A DNA stretch of 64,000 bases from Luteolibacter sp. (GTDB taxonomy: Bacteria; Verrucomicrobiota; Verrucomicrobiia; Verrucomicrobiales; Akkermansiaceae), in assembly GCA_030696085.1 (NCBI GenBank), contig JAUYNL010000044.1, forward strand, positions 1-64,000, read 5' to 3'. The notes below the pieces were generated by a model. It did no database searches. It saw nothing but the letters and a program-made list of their open reading frames with translations, and was not told the DNA's origin. Shown in pieces: positions 56,696-64,000 of this stretch (within the stretch, counting starts at the first letter, position 1; the number at the start of each line of letters is the position of its first letter). A program made the position numbers and the translations under genes.

Positions 56696-57154
56696 ATGAG
56701 CGCGGAAATCGCCACCAACCGGAAAGCCGGCCGCGATTTCCATATTCTGGATAAATTCGAGGCCGGCATCGAGCTCAAGGGCACCGAGGTGAAATCCATT
56801 CGTGCCGGCAAGATCAACGTCTCGGACGCCTTCGCCCGGGTGGAGAACAACCAGGTGTTTCTTTACGGCTGTGACATCCAGCCATGGCAGACCGCCGGCG
56901 AGTGGTTCCAGCATGTTTCCAAGCGCCCGCGCCGCCTGCTGCTCCATAAACGCGAGATTCTCAAGCTCGCTTCCGCCACCGCCATCAAGGGATGCTCCCT
57001 GCCGCTGCTGCGCATCTACTGGAAAAACCGCCGTGTGAAGGTGGAAATCGGCGTCGGCAAGGGGAAAACCCACTCGGATCAACGCCAGGACCTTAAAAAA
57101 CAGGTCGAACTGCGCGAAGCCCAGCGCGAAATGGCGCGCTTCAACCAACGCTGA
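56696..57154 (+). CDS. smpB: SsrA-binding protein
   Basis: 152 aa. Delivers tmRNA to stalled ribosomes. NRKAGRDFHILDKFEAGIEL, GTEVKSIRAGKINVSDAFAR and the basic C-terminal tail (GKGKTHSDQRQDLKKQVELR) match the family throughout. The tmRNA gene (ssrA) was not found nearby. Good length and position after rpoZ. Confidence 0.96.
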   Translation: MSAEIATNRKAGRDFHILDKFEAGIELKGTEVKSIRAGKINVSDAFARVENNQVFLYGCDIQPWQTAGEWFQHVSKRPRRLLLHKREILKLASATAIKGCSLPLLRIYWKNRRVKVEIGVGKGKTHSDQRQDLKKQVELREAQREMARFNQR

Positions 57155-57164
57155 GACCCACCTG

Positions 57165-57470
57165 CTAGGGCTTCGGTTTCGGTTCGCTGGGCGGACGTGC
57201 GATCACCGCGCCCGCGCCGGTGCGGCTTGGTGCGGTCGCTCCGGCATTCCGGAACTCCCCTTCCTCCGGCAAGCCGAGCATGTCTGGCAGGCGGATACCA
57301 TCGTCCGGCGTGCCGGGAACTGCGGGATCCGGCAAGGCGGCGCTTTCCTCCTTCTTCTCTGTTTTTGGAACCGGTGCCTCCAGCACGATGATCGCCTTGG
57401 GAGCCGCGCAGGACATCAGCATGAGTGGTGGTGCCAACCGGGCTAGAAATGCGAGCTTCGTTTTCAACAT
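57165..57470 (-). CDS. Small Pro-rich lipoprotein
   Basis: 101 aa from MLKTKLAFLARLAPP. A signal peptide ends in LMLMSCAAP, a lipobox-like LMSC with Cys near residue 21. The mature part is Pro/Ala/Glu-rich and unstructured, ending in PSEPKPKP. The much longer open frame upstream is the antisense of engB and is not coding. No known family. It converges on smpB. Confidence 0.6.
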   Translation of the reverse strand: MLKTKLAFLARLAPPLMLMSCAAPKAIIVLEAPVPKTEKKEESAALPDPAVPGTPDDGIRLPDMLGLPEEGEFRNAGATAPSRTGAGAVIARPPSEPKPKP

Positions 57471-57590
57471 GTGCGGTCCACGGGATGAGCCGCAGCGACC
57501 AAAGCGCTTTGCGGAGCACCGCGCAAGGGCGAAGCGTGTTGGGCAAATCAGGGATTGCCGCGGGCTTTCCGGCCCCCGAACCTCCGCCCC

Positions 57591-58178
57591 ATGCGAATCA
57601 AGTCCGCCGAGTTTGTCACCAGCGCCCGCAGTCTGGCGGAATGCCCGGATTGGGCGTATCCGGAATTCGCCTTCATCGGCCGCTCGAATGTCGGCAAATC
57701 CTCGCTGATCAACTTGCTCGCCAAACGCGACGCGCTGGCCAAGGTCTCCGCCACCCCCGGCAAGACGCGCCTGCTGAATTTTTTCCTGATGAACCAAGCG
57801 TGGGCGCTGGTGGACCTGCCCGGCTATGGCTTCGCGAAAGCCGCCAAGAGCGAGAAATTCGATTTCAACGAACGCGCCGGCGATTATCTCGAACACCGCC
57901 CGAACCTGCGCCGCGTGTTCGTGCTCATCGATTCGCGCCACGAGCCGCAACGCATCGATCTGGATTTCCTGGCCTGGCTCGGCGGCACCGGCGTGCCGTT
58001 TTCGCTCGTCTTCACCAAGACCGACAAACAATCGCCGTCCAAAACCCGGGCGAACACCGCCCTCTTCCTGGAAACCCTCGCGCCGCAAGTCCCCGCGCCG
58101 CCGCAAGTGCTCGCCAGCTCGGCGAAATCCGGTGATGGCCGCCTGGATATCCTCCGCGTGATCGGCGGCGAACCGTAG
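57591..58178 (+). CDS. engB: Ribosome biogenesis GTPase EngB/YsxC
   Basis: 195 aa from MRIKSAEFVTSAR; an upstream in-frame ATG adds 12 residues. TRAFAC GTPase for 50S subunit assembly. P-loop GRSNVGKSSLIN (G1), TPGKTRLLNFF (G2), DLPGYGFAKA (G3), FTKTDK (G4, with T-K-x-D) and SSAKSGDG (G5) are all present. Length is normal. Confidence 0.95.
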   Translation: MRIKSAEFVTSARSLAECPDWAYPEFAFIGRSNVGKSSLINLLAKRDALAKVSATPGKTRLLNFFLMNQAWALVDLPGYGFAKAAKSEKFDFNERAGDYLEHRPNLRRVFVLIDSRHEPQRIDLDFLAWLGGTGVPFSLVFTKTDKQSPSKTRANTALFLETLAPQVPAPPQVLASSAKSGDGRLDILRVIGGEP

Positions 58179-58227
58179 TCGCTTGGGGAATTGACCAACC
58201 CCCGCCGGTTTCCAAACATATGGAAGC

Positions 58228-60141
58228 GTGCGCTCCGCCATCCTCATTCCGCTGCTCGTCACCCTCTCCTTCACGGCGCATGCCCGGTCGTGGAGCGATG
58301 ATGTGATGTATTTCGTGATGACCGATCGATTCCACGATGCGGATCCCGCCAACAACCAGCCGCCGGGCTGCGATCCCGCGCTGAACGATCCGCAGCAGAA
58401 GGACATCAGCCGCTACCTCGGCGGCGATCTCCGCGGCCTCGAAAATGCCATCCAGGCCGGGTATTTCAACGACCTCGGCGTGACCGCCTTGTGGCTCACT
58501 CCCGTGGTGAAAAACGTCTGGCGCTCCGGCTACGATCTTGGCGGCTGGAAAACCGGATATCATGGGTATTGGGCGCAGGACTGGCTCGACATCGATCCGC
58601 ATCTCGCCAGCCGTGTTTCCCTAACCGGCGAGGCCTATCCGGCCGGCGCGGATGGCCGCATGGCGCATTACCGCGACTTCGTGAAACTCGCCCATTCCAA
58701 GGGCATCAAGATCATCCAGGACGTGGTGCTCAACCACGCGGGGCCGGTGTTTTTCTATGACATGAACGGCGACGGCCGCTTCGATGTGAAGGCCAGGGAC
58801 GAGTGGGTCCAGCCCTTCAAACAGGACGGCTTCCACGACAACGCCGTCTGGGCGGACCTGCCGCAGTGGAACGCGGCGAGAACCCAGCCCGACGGACCAC
58901 GCGAGTTGTTAGGAACCGCGATCGCCACCAGGGGCGTGCTGTCACAACTCGATAGTTATGGCCGCAAGGGCTTCTCCGGCGACAGCCTGGGCAAGAGCGA
59001 CGGCGAGGAAATGATGTGCGATTTCTTCTCGCTGCGCGATTTCTGGACCGCTCCGGACGGCGCGCATTTCGACGCGCTGGTCGATGAGTTCGTGGAGATC
59101 CATCATTTCTATCTGAACACCGTGGGCGTGGACGGACTGCGCGTGGACACGGTGAAACACGCGCACCACGAGTATTGGGACGCCTTCACCGCGCGGCTGC
59201 GCAAGCGGCTCGGCCCGGCGGCGGCGGACAAGCTGATCTTCGGCGAGATCTATGATGGCAGCCCCGCGGTGCTGGGAAGATATACCTGGCGCGCCGACTG
59301 GCCGCAGCACACGGAGCCCTCGCTCGATTCGGTGCTCGATTTCGATTTCTGCTTCAGCGCCCGCGAATACCTGCGCCACCCGGGAGACCGGTACGGTTCG
59401 CCCGCAGCGCTCGAAAAAGCCCTGCTCACCCGCACGGCAGACGCTCCGGACGGGCGCCCGTTTTACAATCCGAATCCCGGCGCGGATGGATTGAACGCGC
59501 GCCAGAAGATGATCACCTTCATCGAAAACCATGACGGCCTGAACCGCTTCCGGGTGAAGGGTGTTAGCGAGCTTCGCAACCGCCTCGCGCAGGGACTGGT
59601 GATGACGCTGCCGGGCATTCCCTGTTTGTATTACGGCACCGAGTTCGCACTGCCGGATCACGAGGCGGAGATCGGCTGGGACTGCGAAACCGGACGCATG
59701 ATGTTTTTTAAAAACAAGGGCGGACCAAGCGTGCGGGAAGTCAGGAACTCACACTCGTTTTCCGAGATCTCACAACTCGCCGCACTGCGCGCGAAACTGC
59801 CCGTGCTGCGCACCGGCAGCCTGATTCCCTTGTGGATGGACAGCGGCGAGGGTGATGAGGACGATGGCGTGTTCGCCTTCGCCCGGGCCGGCGAGGATGG
59901 CAGAGAGTTCGCGGTGGTCGTCATCAACGCCTCCGAAAAGCCGCGCGTCACGGGCATCGGCAGCCACGCGGCCCGGCTGCCCGCATCCCTGCAAAGCGCC
60001 GGCAGGATCCTGCGCCCGGTGCTGGTGATCGGCTCCGGCCCGCTGCCGGAAACGCCCGGCATCAACGCGGCCGAGGAACTGCGCCTGCCGGTCCCCGCCT
60101 CCAGCATGGTCGTCTATCAGGCGGTCCCCGTGGCGGAGTAG
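58228..60141 (+). CDS. Secreted alpha-amylase family (GH13) enzyme
   Basis: 637 aa from a GTG at 58228, giving a signal peptide (SAILIPLLVTLSFTAHA). The GH13 barrel starts at VMYFVMTDRFHDADPANNQP. Conserved region I is QDVVLNHAG, region II DGLRVDTVKH (nucleophile Asp), region III IFGEIYDG (acid/base Glu) and region IV FIENHDGLN (stabilising Asp). A C-terminal beta-sandwich follows from about residue 545. It should hydrolyse starch or glycogen-type alpha-glucans outside the cytoplasm. TTGACC at 58191-58196 may be its -35. Confidence 0.92.
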   Translation: MRSAILIPLLVTLSFTAHARSWSDDVMYFVMTDRFHDADPANNQPPGCDPALNDPQQKDISRYLGGDLRGLENAIQAGYFNDLGVTALWLTPVVKNVWRSGYDLGGWKTGYHGYWAQDWLDIDPHLASRVSLTGEAYPAGADGRMAHYRDFVKLAHSKGIKIIQDVVLNHAGPVFFYDMNGDGRFDVKARDEWVQPFKQDGFHDNAVWADLPQWNAARTQPDGPRELLGTAIATRGVLSQLDSYGRKGFSGDSLGKSDGEEMMCDFFSLRDFWTAPDGAHFDALVDEFVEIHHFYLNTVGVDGLRVDTVKHAHHEYWDAFTARLRKRLGPAAADKLIFGEIYDGSPAVLGRYTWRADWPQHTEPSLDSVLDFDFCFSAREYLRHPGDRYGSPAALEKALLTRTADAPDGRPFYNPNPGADGLNARQKMITFIENHDGLNRFRVKGVSELRNRLAQGLVMTLPGIPCLYYGTEFALPDHEAEIGWDCETGRMMFFKNKGGPSVREVRNSHSFSEISQLAALRAKLPVLRTGSLIPLWMDSGEGDEDDGVFAFARAGEDGREFAVVVINASEKPRVTGIGSHAARLPASLQSAGRILRPVLVIGSGPLPETPGINAAEELRLPVPASSMVVYQAVPVAE

Positions 60142-60245
60142 GCAAAAGTGCTGCCAGGGAATCCGCGGCAAGCCCGGACAAACTACCGTTGCTCCGATCA
60201 AGGCCTGGCGGGGTTCGCCTGCCGGACCTCCACGGCCCCTGACAG

Positions 60246-60276
60246 CGCCGGGAGCGAAACCCGGCGGCCCGTTTTC
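60246..60276 (+). terminator. Putative terminator after the amylase gene
   Basis: CGCCGGG (60246-60252), loop AGCGAAA, CCCGGCG (60260-60266), then GCCCGTTTT. A strong seven-base GC stem followed by a short T-run on the plus strand, about 105 bases after the amylase stop. Confidence 0.6.
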
Positions 60277-60316
60277 CGCAATCCCTATTTTTCCGGTAAC
60301 GGGCGGCGTCTTTTCA

Positions 60317-60333
60317 CAGGGCATTTGGTTTGA
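60317..60333 (+). repeat. Left terminal inverted repeat of the ISAs1 element
   Basis: CAGGGCATTTGGTTTGA. Starts with CAGGGC, as ISAs1-family ends do. Two mismatches against the right end. Confidence 0.8.
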
Positions 60334-60369
60334 AGTTCGGCAGTCCTTTTCGCTGTTGATTTCGAGATA

Positions 60370-62201
60370 GTGCTAGACAAAAGGGCACGAAAATGCTCGA
60401 TTAGGCTCGTGAGAACGAAATCCACTGCACTGGACGGCGAGGGGACAGCGTCCCCCGGAGTGTTGGAAATACGGGTCGCACGAGGCCCGGCGGACTGGGC
60501 CATCGCCCATCAAATGCTCGATGAGGAGCATCTGCTCGGCGCGGGCCGGGAGGCGGGTGAGCGCTTGTGCCAGTTCGTGCTGGAGGACGGCCAACCGGTC
60601 GCCGTGCTGGTATGGTGCGCTGCCGCGTGGCACCTCAAGGATCGTGACGAGCGGATCGGTTGGGACGCCGTGACCCGCTCGCAACGCCTCAAACTCGTCG
60701 TGCAACTGCGCCGTTTCCTGGTGCTCGAAGCCACCCGCCGCCCCAACCTCGCCTCCCAATGTCTCGGACTGGCCCTGCGCGGACTCTGTGCCGCATGGAG
60801 TTGCGAACACGGTTATCGGCCCTTGCTCGCCGAGAGTTTTAGTGATCCCGAAAGCCACGCGGGCACCGTTTACAAGGCCACCAACTGGACCTGCGCAGGC
60901 GACACCAAAGGCTTTTCGCAAGACCACACCGATTATTACATTCCTAACGAAAGGCCGAAAAAGCTCTGGCTCAAGCCCCTTGCCCCCAACGCGCTGGTCC
61001 TGATGTGCGCACCCCGACTGCCCGATGATTGCGTCGCCGCCGAGGTGGGCCGCGGCGGAGTGCGCAGCCCCTTGAAAACCAGCCAGCTCAAGAGCCTGCG
61101 CAACGCGTTTGAGTTGGTGGAAGACCCGCGCCGCGCCCAAAGCCGCCGCCACCCGCTCACCGCGATGCTCACCCTCATCGCCCTGGGGTTGCTCATGGGC
61201 GGACGCGACATGCTCAACATCTGGCGCAAGGTCGCCTGCCTCGACCAACGCCAGCGCGAAGCCATCGGCCTGCGCGTGCGCCACAAGGAGAGCGGACTGC
61301 TCAAAATGCCCGGCTACGACGCGCTCAACGACCTTTTTCACCTGCTGGATCCCGAAGCCTACGCCCGCGCTCTAACCGCCTGGCTCCAGGCCAACACCGG
61401 ACTCCTGCCGCGCAGCCTCGCCCTTGATGGCAAAAGCATCGGCGCCGGCAAATGCGGCATGATCATCACGCTCTGCCGCCATGAGGACGGCCGCCCCGTC
61501 GCCATGATCCCGGCCACCGGGAAAAAAGAAGACTGCGAGGTGAGCGAGGCCCGCTCCCTATTGGCTGATCCACAGGTCCGACTGGAAAACGCTCTGGTCA
61601 CCGCCGATCCGCTCCACAACAAGCAAGCCACCGTGCGCGTCATCGCCGAAAAAGGTGGCGACTACCTCGTCGGCACCAAGGATAACACCCCAAAGCGTCA
61701 TGAGGCGGCGGTCGAAGCCCTGCGTGGCACCCCCTTTTTGCAGTAAGCTGTGAAGCCGGGCACGGTCGCATCGACACCCGCACGGCGGCCATCGCCGCCA
61801 TCACCCCCGTGACCGCCGGGCTGCCATTCGCACGCAGCGCGGTGGTGGTGCGGCGCGTCTGGCAGATCAAAACCACACCGGAAGCGCAAGACAAGAGTCA
61901 TGTCCGGCACTTCCTAACCAGCCTCGACCCTGGCGAGAACCAACGCATCCCCGCAGCGGTCCGGGGCCACTGGAGCGTGGAGAACCTCAATCACTACAAA
62001 CGCGACACCTGCCTGTGGCAGGAGGACGACCATCGGCACCGGCGCGTCAACATCGCGCAGAATCTCGCACTGACCCGCAACGCGCTGCTGGCCATCATCC
62101 CCTTTGGCGCGAACGAGCCGCTATCAAGTTGGTTCGAGAACTACCAGCGCCACCCGGCCAAGGCCATCCAACTCATCCTTCACGCCGCCCCCGTCCAATG
62201 A
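60370..62201 (+). pseudogene. DruA (DUF4338)-ISAs1 transposase fusion, frameshifted
   Basis: Frame one (60370-61746, 458 codons, GTG start) holds a DUF4338 domain at residues 35-205 (RDERIGWD, NLASQCLGLALRGL, GYRPLLAESFSDPE, GTVYKATNW) and then an ISAs1 transposase from about 238, with DDE residues Asp352 (LDGKSI) and Asp412 (VTADPLHNK). A stop (TAA 61744-61746) follows a CCCCCTTTTT run. The -1 frame continues immediately as SCEAGHGRIDTRTAAI and carries the catalytic Glu in HWSVENLNHYKRDTCLW, ending at 62201. Either a mutation or programmed slippage. DruA is otherwise known from the Druantia anti-phage system. Confidence 0.85.
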
Positions 62202-62205
62202 CATC

Positions 62206-62222
62206 TCAAGCCAAACGCCCTG
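62206..62222 (-). repeat. Right terminal inverted repeat of the ISAs1 element
   Basis: Complement reads CAGGGCGTTTGGCTTGA. It starts five bases after the transposase stop. Confidence 0.8.
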
Positions 62223-62390
62223 GTTGGACTCGATGCAATGGAGCTTTGGCATTGCTGAGACGGTCATGGCTGGTCCACGATGATCGCGGAGCGCATGAGG
62301 CACAATCTCCAGGTGTCAGCGACTTCAACCATGATGAAAATCGTCCCGCACTGGAGCTGGCGGCTTGTTTCAAGGGATTATCCGGCCATT

Positions 62391-63515
62391 ATGTGCTTCA
62401 TGACAGCACCGGAAGCCACTCCTCCCCGCGCGCTTTGGCTGCGCGATGGCGGGCGGGTGCTGCTGGATTTGTCAGGCGAGTGGCGGCGCGGCGGCACGGA
62501 GCCGGTGATCGAGGGTGAAGCGGGGGACCGCTTGCCCGAGGCCTATGTGACCGACGGACTGGGGACTTTTGATTCCACACTGCCGGCTTTTCTTCTGGCC
62601 ATGATTCGCAGAATGGAAGCCGCTGAGCCCCCGCTCGAGGGTCTGCCGCCGAATTTGCATGGTTTGATGGAGCTGGCCCTGGCCGTTCCGGAGGAAATCG
62701 AGGCGCGCGGCGAGCCGGAAGAGTCCACGCCGATCAAGGTGCTGGGGGCCGCCTCGATGAACGTCTGGGCAGGCGTCCGCTCCATCAATGAGTTCACCGG
62801 GCAGTCGATGCTATCGCTCGGACGTTTCATGGCCGGCCGCGCCCGATTTCGCCCCCGTGATTTTTGGATGATTGTAGAGGACTGCGGTGCCAAGGCGCTG
62901 CCCATTGTTTCGTTGATCAGTTTTCTCATTGGTTTGATTCTCGCTTTCGTGGGAAACGTGCAGCTCGCAAACTTCGGTGCCAGTCTATACGTCGCGGATC
63001 TGGTGGGCATCGCGATGGTGCGCGAAATGGGAGTGGTGATGACGGCCATCATCATGAGCGGCCGCACCGGAGCGGCGTTCGCCGCGCATCTGGGAAGCAT
63101 GAAGGCCAATCAGGAAATCGACGCCCTGCGCACTTTTGGCTTCGATCCCTTCGACTTTCTGGTCCTGCCGCGCATGCTCGCGCTGGTTCTGATGATGCCC
63201 TTGCTGACAGTGTATTCGAATATCATCGGCATCCTCGGCGGCATGCTTGTCGGCGCGGCGGTGGGCATTCCGCCGATCCTTTATTGGAATGAAACCCTTA
63301 GCATCGTCACTTTGGAAAACGCGTTCCTCGGGGTGTTCAAGAGCGTGTTTTTCGGCATTGTGATCGCCATGTGCGGCTGCCTGCAGGGCATGCACGCGGG
63401 AAATTCCTCGGCTGCCGTCGGCCTCGCGACCACCCGCGCGGTGGTCGCCTCGATCTCCGCCATCATCGTTCTCGATTCCGCGTTCGCCGCGATTTTCACC
63501 ATTCTTGATATCTAA
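62391..63515 (+). CDS. mlaE: MlaE-type lipid ABC transporter permease with STAS-like N-terminus
   Basis: 374 aa if the ATG at 62391 is used (AGGGA lies 13 bases before it); ATG at 62400 is equally possible. The first 125 residues form a STAS-like or linker domain (ALWLRDGGRVLLDLSGEW, GLGTFDSTLPAFLLAMIRRM). The permease (about 130-374) has five membrane helices and MlaE hallmarks ALPIVSLISFLIGLILAF, VREMGVVMTAIIMSGRTGAA, FAAHLGSMKANQEIDALRTF. Inner-membrane channel of a phospholipid transporter that keeps the outer membrane asymmetric. The next gene starts four bases after its stop. Confidence 0.92.
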   Translation: MCFMTAPEATPPRALWLRDGGRVLLDLSGEWRRGGTEPVIEGEAGDRLPEAYVTDGLGTFDSTLPAFLLAMIRRMEAAEPPLEGLPPNLHGLMELALAVPEEIEARGEPEESTPIKVLGAASMNVWAGVRSINEFTGQSMLSLGRFMAGRARFRPRDFWMIVEDCGAKALPIVSLISFLIGLILAFVGNVQLANFGASLYVADLVGIAMVREMGVVMTAIIMSGRTGAAFAAHLGSMKANQEIDALRTFGFDPFDFLVLPRMLALVLMMPLLTVYSNIIGILGGMLVGAAVGIPPILYWNETLSIVTLENAFLGVFKSVFFGIVIAMCGCLQGMHAGNSSAAVGLATTRAVVASISAIIVLDSAFAAIFTILDI

Positions 63516-63518
63516 CAG

Positions 63519-64000
63519 ATGCCCGGTTCCACCAGCCATTCCCCGGCCAAGGCGAAGATCGCCGTGCGCGATCTGACGATGGCCTACGGTTCCTTCGTAG
63601 TGATGCGGGATTTGAATTTCGAGGTCGCGGAAAAGGACATTTTCGTGATTATGGGCGGCAGCGGTTGTGGCAAGAGCACGCTGTTACGCCATCTCATCGG
63701 CCTGCGGGAACCCGCCAAGGGAAGCATTCTGTTTGAAGGCGAGGATTTCACCGCCACCCCCGCCGCGGAGCGCGGGCGCTTCATCCGGCGCATGGGTGTG
63801 ATGTATCAATCGGGTGCCTTGTGGTCGTCGCTGACTCTGGCTGAAAACATCGCCATGCCGCTTGAGGAGCACACCCAGCTCCCTCCCGGGACGATCCGCG
63901 AGTTGGTTTCCTACAAGCTCGCGCTGGTCGGTCTATCCGGATATGAGGAATACTATCCGGCCCAGATCAGCGGGGGCATGAACAAGCGCGCCGGCATCGC
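63519..64000 (+). CDS. mlaF: MlaF-type ABC transporter ATP-binding protein (partial)
   Basis: At least 160 aa; the gene runs off the window. Walker A is GGSGCGKST, the Q-loop region MGVMYQSGALWSSLTLAENI is typical of MlaF, and the ABC signature begins at QISGGMNKRAGIA at the edge. Walker B lies beyond 64000. It pairs with MlaE directly upstream. mlaD should follow outside the window. Confidence 0.93.
   Translation, partial: MPGSTSHSPAKAKIAVRDLTMAYGSFVVMRDLNFEVAEKDIFVIMGGSGCGKSTLLRHLIGLREPAKGSILFEGEDFTATPAAERGRFIRRMGVMYQSGALWSSLTLAENIAMPLEEHTQLPPGTIRELVSYKLALVGLSGYEEYYPAQISGGMNKRAGI

What the first reader, a model, noticed from the sequence alone, without database searches (positions are those of the whole stretch)
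60370..62201. Transposase fused to the Druantia DruA (DUF4338) domain
The first 205 residues carry the full DUF4338 pattern (IGW, NLAS, PLLAESFSD, GTVYKATNW), followed without a break by an ISAs1 DDE transposase inside clear terminal repeats. DruA is known as an anti-phage component of unknown activity. A fusion to a transposase suggests that DUF4338 is a DNA-handling domain that entered defence systems from mobile elements, or the reverse.
Basis: partly seen in the sequence, partly recalled or inferred. Interest (0 to 1): 0.6.

Follow-up and report, generated by a model that had tools for sequence, protein, structure and literature searches.

The report
Frameshifted transposase carrying a DruA-like domain
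A jumping gene, present in at least nine places in this bacterium, carries at the front of its transposase a domain related to a phage-defence protein and to a phage DNA-modifying enzyme, and it appears able to make its full transposase only if the reading frame slips; the same domain accompanies several unrelated kinds of jumping gene.

Summary
The fusion is real, but it is not one unbroken reading frame. The element is a 1,906-bp insertion sequence (60317-62222) with CAGGGC inverted repeats. At least nine insertion sites are visible in the genome, and four left/right pairs show 10-bp target duplications. ORF1 (to 61746) holds a DUF4338/DruA domain and the first half of an ISAs1-type DDE transposase (both Asp). 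The catalytic Glu lies in the -1 frame, reached at a CCCCCTTTTT run (61730-61739). This split is conserved. In 25 of 26 distinct DruA-ISAs1 elements with intact ORF1, ORF2 is in another frame (14 in -1, 11 in +1). In all 25, the longest run of the element sits at the junction. Fourteen full-length DruA-less ISAs1 relatives are single-frame. Programmed frameshifting is therefore very likely, though not shown by experiment, and the elements are one lineage. DUF4338 is also fused to Tn5/IS4-type and DDE_5 transposases and precedes IS66 transposases, in several cases inside shared terminal repeats. Its predicted fold is GNAT, closest to phage Mu Mom. Druantia DruA forms a separate, distant clade, so the direction of transfer stays open. 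The domain's biochemical role is inferred only.

The parts
60317..62222 (+). Whole insertion sequence, 1,906 bp, ISAs1-related, DruA-carrying
   Evidence: Ends fixed by contigs of the same genome that stop inside the element and diverge outside it
60317..60333 (+). Left terminal inverted repeat CAGGGCATTTGGTTTGA
   Evidence: 15 of 17 match the right end read inward
62206..62222 (-). Right terminal inverted repeat, CAGGGCGTTTGGCTTGA read inward
60307..60316 (.). CGTCTTTTCA, left copy of a 10-bp target duplication; its partner is the right flank on contig C90, not the window's own right flank
   Evidence: L006 right flank CGTCTTTTCA
60370..61746 (+). ORF1 as the longest frame (458 aa); more likely start GTG 60409; DruA/DUF4338 + DDE_Tnp_1_assoc + first half of DDE, stop TAA 61744-61746
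   Evidence: start argued from stops in L020/L021
60460..61005 (+). DUF4338/DruA domain, GNAT fold predicted (model of 60460-61065, mean pLDDT 89)
61057..61734 (+). DDE_Tnp_1_assoc and first half of the DDE domain
61426..61428 (+). Codon of the first putative catalytic Asp (LALDGKS)
   Evidence: assignment as catalytic is by motif, recalled
61606..61608 (+). Codon of the second putative catalytic Asp (VTADPLH)
   Evidence: assignment as catalytic is by motif, recalled
61730..61739 (+). Slippery run CCCCCTTTTT, proposed -1 frameshift site
   Evidence: Longest such run of the element; same or similar in relatives
61704..62201 (+). ORF2 in the -1 frame (opens 61704, stop TGA 62199-62201): second half of DDE with the putative catalytic Glu
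   Evidence: (NF033564 240-313)
61980..61982 (+). Codon of the putative catalytic Glu (SVENLN)
   Evidence: by motif, recalled

Best explanation
It is an active or recently active insertion sequence of a distinct, DruA-carrying lineage related to ISAs1. Shown by sequence: terminal repeats, 10-bp target duplications, at least nine insertion sites, and two overlapping ORFs. Strongly inferred: translation of ORF1 alone gives a DUF4338-transposase fragment that lacks the catalytic Glu. A -1 slip on CCCCCTTTTT then joins ORF1 to ORF2 and makes the complete DDE transposase, which keeps transposition rare, as in IS1 and IS3. Weakly inferred: the DUF4338 domain is a Mom-like GNAT-fold domain that works in cis with the transposase on DNA (modification or recognition of the element's ends or target). 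It is a standing accessory module of several unrelated DDE transposons. The DruA subunit of Druantia is a distant relative of it.
For: Element ends and duplications. Frameshift: the window, L019/L049, L020/L051 and L048 share a C4-5T5-6 run and a zero-frame stop two codons after the TTG. Among 26 distinct elements with intact ORF1 and a detectable downstream half, 14 are -1, 11 are +1 and 1 is in frame. In 25 of 25 shifted ones the longest run of the 1.7-1.9 kb element is in the 63-101 bp junction window, against 0 of 14 DruA-less ISAs1 controls. The split elements recur as identical copies: four fetched copies in G158 and two Thiodictyon plasmid copies, both with 10-bp duplications. Slip direction follows the transposase tree, 4 changes over 27 rows. 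NG86 dN/dS is below 0.4 in all three parts, ORF2 included. Fold: Mom of phage Mu is first in Foldseek (E 9e-8) and VIA-align (Z 14.8, next 12.4); PHROG 1384 'Mom-like DNA modification protein', E 6e-8. Partners: Tn5/IS4 type, DDE_5, IS66, with shared repeats in L065, L067, L071, L070, L064.
Against: No expression or transposition data. In this genome only one internal copy is assembled, so the frame of the other copies is unseen. One intact element (L144) and three G635 copies are in frame, so the slip is not indispensable in every branch. The run lies in different codon phases, and the window-type site is not the canonical X XXY YYZ heptamer. RNA structure after the run is unremarkable (z -1.6). 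The G158 copies show no target duplication, and none was found for L065, L067, L070, L064 or L051. The DruA-ISAs1 lineage is one clade, so its link with frameshifting is a single evolutionary case. Mom is below the Pfam cut-off (17.7 against 27.1 bits) and 16-19% identical. The usual acetyl-CoA loop [RQ]xxGx[GA] is present in 1 of 79 domains, not in the window.
Confidence: 0.8

Rival explanations
1. The frame break is a decay mutation or a homopolymer assembly error in one copy; the true transposase is one ORF.
For: Only one internal copy is assembled in this draft genome, and contig C4 joins the two ends of different insertions. Some relatives are decayed (L020, L146, L147). A few relatives are in frame.
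Against: The break is at the same place, on the longest run of the element, in 25 of 26 distinct elements with intact ORF1. It is in identical multi-copy elements, including two plasmid records labelled complete sequence. It is absent from 14 of 14 full-length DruA-less relatives. ORF2 stays under purifying selection.
Confidence: 0.06
2. The full transposase is made by RNA polymerase slippage on the run, not by the ribosome.
For: Runs occur in all three codon phases and some are A8-A9 or T7-T9.
Against: C5T5 and T3C6 blocks are short for polymerase slippage (recalled, not tested). P-site re-pairing is possible at many sites (inference from the codons).
Confidence: 0.25
3. DUF4338 is a non-catalytic DNA-binding or target-choice domain of the transposase.
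For: Fused or adjacent to at least four DDE families; the canonical acetyl-CoA loop is absent in 78 of 79 domains.
Against: 16 invariant positions over 22 divergent rows and closest match to an enzyme, Mom, which suggest a kept active site.
Confidence: 0.35
4. DUF4338 is a defence gene captured as cargo that gives the host phage protection.
For: Homology to Druantia DruA and to a DruA1-SspF fusion.
Against: Fused in frame to the transposase; no frame over 637 aa, so no DruE-sized helicase, in 57000-64000; no PADLOC match; lacks the SSxYNRL stretch of the five Druantia-type rows; Druantia is a separate clade.
Confidence: 0.08

Closest known systems
ISAs1 family insertion sequences (NF033564)
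   Same: DDE_Tnp_1_assoc plus DDE core in the same order; CAGGG-type ends and 10-bp duplications (that these are usual for ISAs1 is recalled)
   Different: Extra N-terminal DUF4338; DDE split over two frames; separate clade from 14 ordinary ISAs1 elements of related genomes
IS1 / IS3 type frameshift control
   Same: Complete DDE only in the trans-frame product; works like it (principle described in passages of PMC3281130)
   Different: Different family; mostly C/T runs instead of A runs; both +1 and -1 members; accessory GNAT-fold domain in ORF1
Druantia type I DruA (PF14236)
   Same: Homologous core, RDxxIGWD-like motif
   Different: No druB-E seen nearby; no PADLOC match; C-terminal motif E[ST]F...GTxYxAxNW instead of SSxYNRL; distant clade
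Mom of phage Mu and Mom-like proteins (PF25680, PHROG 1384)
   Same: GNAT fold, best structural match; weak sequence match
   Different: 16-19% identity, below Pfam cut-off, fused to a transposase; activity untested
DUF4338 as a GNAT domain at the N-terminus of DndF (PMC10853773, passages)
   Same: Same domain called GNAT there
   Different: That context is phosphorothioate-linked defence; the passages found mention no transposase fusion

Membership tests
Insertion sequence (general) | Terminal inverted repeats | tested here: met
   15 of 17 bases
Insertion sequence (general) | Target site duplication | tested here: met
   Four left/right contig pairs with 10-bp duplications; the window copy's own two flanks do not match
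Insertion sequence (general) | Several copies at different sites | tested here: met
   5 left and 9 right ends, at least 9 sites
ISAs1 family | NF033564 transposase over its cut-off in one protein | tested here: inconclusive
   52.5 and 50.6 bits in two frames, cut-off 70; DDE_Tnp_1_assoc over its cut-off
ISAs1 family | Groups with ordinary ISAs1 transposases | tested here: inconclusive
   Split from 14 ordinary ISAs1 by one branch; no other IS family included as outgroup
Programmed frameshift IS | Conserved slippery run in the ORF overlap, catalytic site completed only by the shift | tested here: met
   (catalytic residues assigned by motif)
Programmed frameshift IS | Trans-frame protein detected | not testable with these tools
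   needs experiment
Druantia DruA | PADLOC DruA model match | tested here: not met
   No family up to E 1
Druantia DruA | druB-E with a large helicase as neighbours | tested here: not met
   No frame over 637 aa in 57000-64000 and the element itself ends at 62222; contig join at the element limits this
DUF4338/DruA domain (PF14236) | Score above gathering cut-off | tested here: met
   45.2 against 27 bits
Mom family (PF25680) | Score above gathering cut-off | tested here: not met
   17.7 against 27.1 bits
GNAT superfamily | GNAT fold | tested here: met
   330 PDB matches at E <= 0.001; the 50 listed are Mom or acetyltransferases; VIA-align
GNAT superfamily | Acetyl-CoA loop [RQ]xxGx[GA] after strand 4 (motif recalled) | tested here: not met
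   1 of 79 rows, not the window

The most novel reading that the evidence does not exclude
DUF4338 is a transposon-borne, Mom-like DNA-modifying enzyme that marks or shields transposon ends or fresh insertions. It has been recruited repeatedly by unrelated DDE transposons. Druantia DruA and the DruA-DndF fusions are defence-adapted relatives of it, so the unknown activity of DruA could be solved by assaying the transposon form.
Probability: 0.25. Interest if true: 0.88.

Novelty: new variant of a known kind. Interest (0 to 1): 0.68.

Why it matters
DruA is an anti-phage protein of unknown activity. Finding its domain as a regular partner of at least four kinds of DDE transposase, with Mom as the nearest fold, gives a small, testable system for its biochemistry and a concrete hypothesis (DNA modification). 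The element also adds a lineage with a conserved frameshift in which sister groups solve the same problem by +1 or by -1 slippage, useful for studying how slippery sites evolve. It warns annotators: such elements can appear as an 'ISAs1 family transposase' plus a 'hypothetical protein'.

Tried and rejected
Recent deletion joining two genes: rejected, since the fusion is one old clade. Frameshift as decay: rejected as the main reading. A downstream RNA stimulator: no support (z -1.6). L061 as a second, independent case of a split DruA-linked transposase: its frames do break, but at no slippery run that I could see, so it was not counted. Foldseek against viral models gave Mom first too, then mixed GNAT-named, uncharacterised and other proteins. 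Sequence search against solved structures found nothing with A2 and only three E 0.4-1 matches with A3. Phages: two ISAs1 records, matched without the DUF4338 part. Target duplications were looked for and not found in L065, L067, L070, L064 and L051 and in the G158 copies.

Rows left out of the frame count: L050 (deletion in ORF2), L099 and L100 (extra frame or stop defects), L113, L020/L039/L051, L139, L146 and L147/L164 (broken or partial ORF1), L038/L014/L169, L053 and L055 (A7-A8 site upstream; L055 is broken), L085 and L095 (T9 and T7 sites further upstream), L125 and other duplicates; L054 has an A8 run but no second half was found. With L050, L099 and L100 put back it would be 28 of 29. 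L108 was kept as +1, but it has a C10 run and may be a run-length variant or sequencing error. L133 and L104 were kept although their downstream match is shorter. The three in-frame G635 copies came from outside the junction table and are not in the 26. Among loci without a DruA hit I used the 14 full-length ones as controls. Four partial ones (L037, L075, L161, L165) are in frame. Two partial ones (L017, L152) are shifted -1: L152 is a truncated member of the DruA lineage (72% identical to L129) with CCCCTTTTTT at the junction, and L017 is a fragment that groups with the window type.

Literature: searches for DUF4338 + transposase, DruA + Druantia + structure, DUF4338, ISAs1 + frameshift, programmed frameshifting + IS + ISAs1, phage Mu Mom, PF14236 and IS66 + GNAT. 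In those listings I saw no description of this fusion or of ISAs1 frameshifting, but I looked inside few of the papers. Passages only were read in PMC10853773, PMC7251935, PMC6174562 and PMC3281130. PMC12458937 and PMC13192584 were searched by word only, with no DruA, transposase or acetyltransferase found. Most subscription papers are not in that library.

Full report
WHAT IS THERE. The window is the first 64 kb of a 98.7-kb contig (C4) of a 3.77-Mb, 110-contig draft genome. The closest named relatives of the protein lie in Verrucomicrobiota MAGs. At 60317-62222 lies a 1,906-bp insertion sequence. Its ends were fixed by other contigs of the same genome that run 138-140 bases into the element and stop, as a repeat does in short-read assembly. 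The ends are inverted repeats, CAGGGCATTTGGTTTGA and CAGGGCGTTTGGCTTGA, 15 of 17 alike. Exact end searches give five left and nine right ends, hence at least nine sites. Four left/right pairs share ten flanking bases: CGTCTTTTCA, CTAGTGTGTC, ACTTCACCCG and GAAATGCGGG. The window copy's left flank pairs with the right flank on contig C90, not with the window's own right flank, so contig C4 joins two insertions across the element, by assembly or by recombination.

READING FRAMES. ORF1 (longest form 60370-61746) carries DruA/DUF4338, DDE_Tnp_1_assoc and the first half of the DDE domain, with both Asp codons. It ends at TAA 61744. The rest of the domain, with the Glu codon at 61980, is in the -1 frame to 62201. 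The two frames overlap for 43 bases, and CCCCCTTTTT (61730-61739) lies in that overlap. The catalytic residues are named by motif.

IS THE BREAK A DEFECT? I collected relatives by protein search in the family (117 genomes, 20 with a match) and the class (384 genomes, 37 with a match at E <= 1e-20), by PF14236 in the phylum (387 genomes, 41 with a match), in GTDB contigs (28 loci) and in plasmids (65 records, 2 of them covering at least 80% of the query). I mapped three home-made profiles (DUF4338, first and second half of the transposase) onto all frames. Of 26 distinct elements with an intact ORF1 and a detectable second half, 14 have it in -1, 11 in +1 and one in the same frame. The rows dropped are listed under Tried and rejected; with the three partial ones put back it is 28 of 29. 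In 25 of 25 shifted elements the longest homopolymer or two-block C/T run of the whole element is inside the 63-101-base junction window: C-then-T runs in 12 of 14 of the -1 type and A8-A9 in the other two, T-then-C in 9 of 11 of the +1 type. In 14 of 14 full-length ISAs1 elements without DruA the frame is single, and in none is the longest run there. Two truncated loci without a DruA hit are shifted, but both belong to the DruA lineage by tree, one weakly. Four identical copies fetched from G158 share the break, though they show no target duplication. Two copies in Thiodictyon plasmids (records labelled complete sequence) lie in 2,057-bp elements with perfect 10-bp duplications; the records name the parts 'ISAs1 family transposase' and 'hypothetical protein'. 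L104 and L114 also have 10-bp duplications, L137 9-10 bp and L138 9 bp. On a transposase tree the slip direction needs only 4 changes over 27 DruA rows, and the two in-frame types sit inside the +1 groups. NG86 dN/dS among the window, L019 and L048 is 0.12-0.18 for DUF4338, 0.17-0.28 for the first half and 0.13-0.40 for the second. I conclude that the break is a kept feature, most simply programmed frameshifting. The limit is that DruA-ISAs1 elements are one clade, so the coupling of DruA and frameshifting is one evolutionary case.

WHAT DUF4338 IS. A model of the window domain built with 21 relatives has mean pLDDT 89. Its best match among solved structures is Mom of phage Mu, 8bv8 (Foldseek E 9e-8, TM 0.58; VIA-align Z 14.8, rmsd 3.5 over 158 residues, next 12.4), followed by ordinary GNAT acetyltransferases. 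Viral models also rank Mom first. By sequence, PHROG 1384 'Mom-like DNA modification protein' matches residues 102-181 (E 6e-8) and Pfam Mom weakly (17.7 bits; 26.1 bits in L080; cut-off 27.1). The domain has 16 invariant positions over 22 rows, but not the usual acetyl-CoA loop (1 of 79 rows). PMC10853773 (passages) already calls DUF4338 a GNAT domain, at the N-terminus of DndF. That Mom modifies adenine is recalled, not from a call.

WHERE ELSE IT OCCURS. DUF4338 is fused to Tn5/IS4-type transposases (Tnp_DNA_bind, DDE_Tnp_1, Dimer_Tnp_Tn5). L071 has shared terminal repeats and a duplication of about 9 bp (9-11 by where the end is set); L065 and L067 have shared repeats without a duplication found. 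No such repeats were found for L066, L069, L072 and L127, some of which are cut by a contig end. It is fused to DDE_5 in L080. As a separate gene it precedes an IS66 transposase in 8 of 10 loci whose next long frame I scanned (L060, L064, L070, L078, L082, L086, L154, L155), a DDE_5 transposase in one (L063) and nothing recognised in one (L062). L070 and L064 have common repeats around both genes; none were found by the same test for L078, L063, L082 and L155. In L061 an ISAs1-like gene follows, and repeats with a 9-bp duplication enclose both. In 50 loci taken (30 laid by the tool, 20 chosen by me, so not a random sample and with copies), 42 places had a profile hit and either a transposase or at least 600 bp downstream. 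Of these, 38 showed one of the three main transposase types; two of the other four have DDE_5 or DDE_Tnp_1. Six more places end too early and three loci gave no profile hit.

RELATION TO DRUANTIA. Druantia DruA proteins near a DEAD/DEAH helicase (P. putida L172, Nitrosococcus L173, Meiothermus L175), a Roseivivax DruA (L174) and a DruA1-SspF fusion (L116, PADLOC E 5e-108) align over the GNAT core with RDxxIGWD-like motifs. All five have SSxYNRL where transposon forms have E[ST]F...GTxYxAxNW. They form one clade (100/99) on a long branch. All 42 ISAs1-fused rows lie in a clade of 48 (100/97), with two broken rows and four in which no transposase was seen; the ISAs1-adjacent L061 lies outside it. 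Twelve of 13 Tn5-type rows form a third clade with one unassigned row (100/98). Nothing roots this tree, so descent in either direction remains possible.

MECHANISM. Shown: mobility signature, split frames, conserved run. Strongly inferred: rare slippage makes the complete DDE transposase, and the common ORF1 product, lacking Glu, cannot cut and may hold transposition down. Weakly inferred: the DUF4338 part acts in cis on DNA. I give roughly one chance in four to base modification as the main function, and somewhat more to recognition without catalysis.

Noticed in passing
window 60307-62232: Contig C4 joins the left flank of one insertion to the right flank of another across the element, so genes left and right of it in the window may not be true neighbours.
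   Followed up: partly
L116 78-3737 (-): A 1,220-aa protein in a Verrucomicrobiota genome joins a DruA1-type protein (PADLOC E 5e-108) to an SspF/nSTAND3-like ATPase part; a DruA-DndF type fusion.
   Followed up: partly
L038 1-2498 (= G000:C35): The same genome holds a second, about 54% identical DruA-ISAs1 element type whose frame changes at an A-run upstream of the window-type site.
   Followed up: partly
L171 5369-11354: In Thiodictyon pTs485 a DUF4338 gene, a site-specific integrase with an IS91 transposase, and an IS4 transposase lie between two DUF2235 genes, perhaps an IS4-type element with DUF4338 inserted in one DUF2235 gene.
   Followed up: partly
L085 about 1530 and L095 about 2530 (- strand frame): Two relatives change frame at T9 and T7 runs at a third site, upstream of the window-type site.
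   Followed up: no
L176, L177, L178 (G635): A single-contig genome has many candidates for this protein (73 in the first look); three DruA-ISAs1 copies read are in one frame.
   Followed up: partly
L144 2660-2830: In-frame DruA-ISAs1 element that still has a T7C3 run at the usual place.
   Followed up: no
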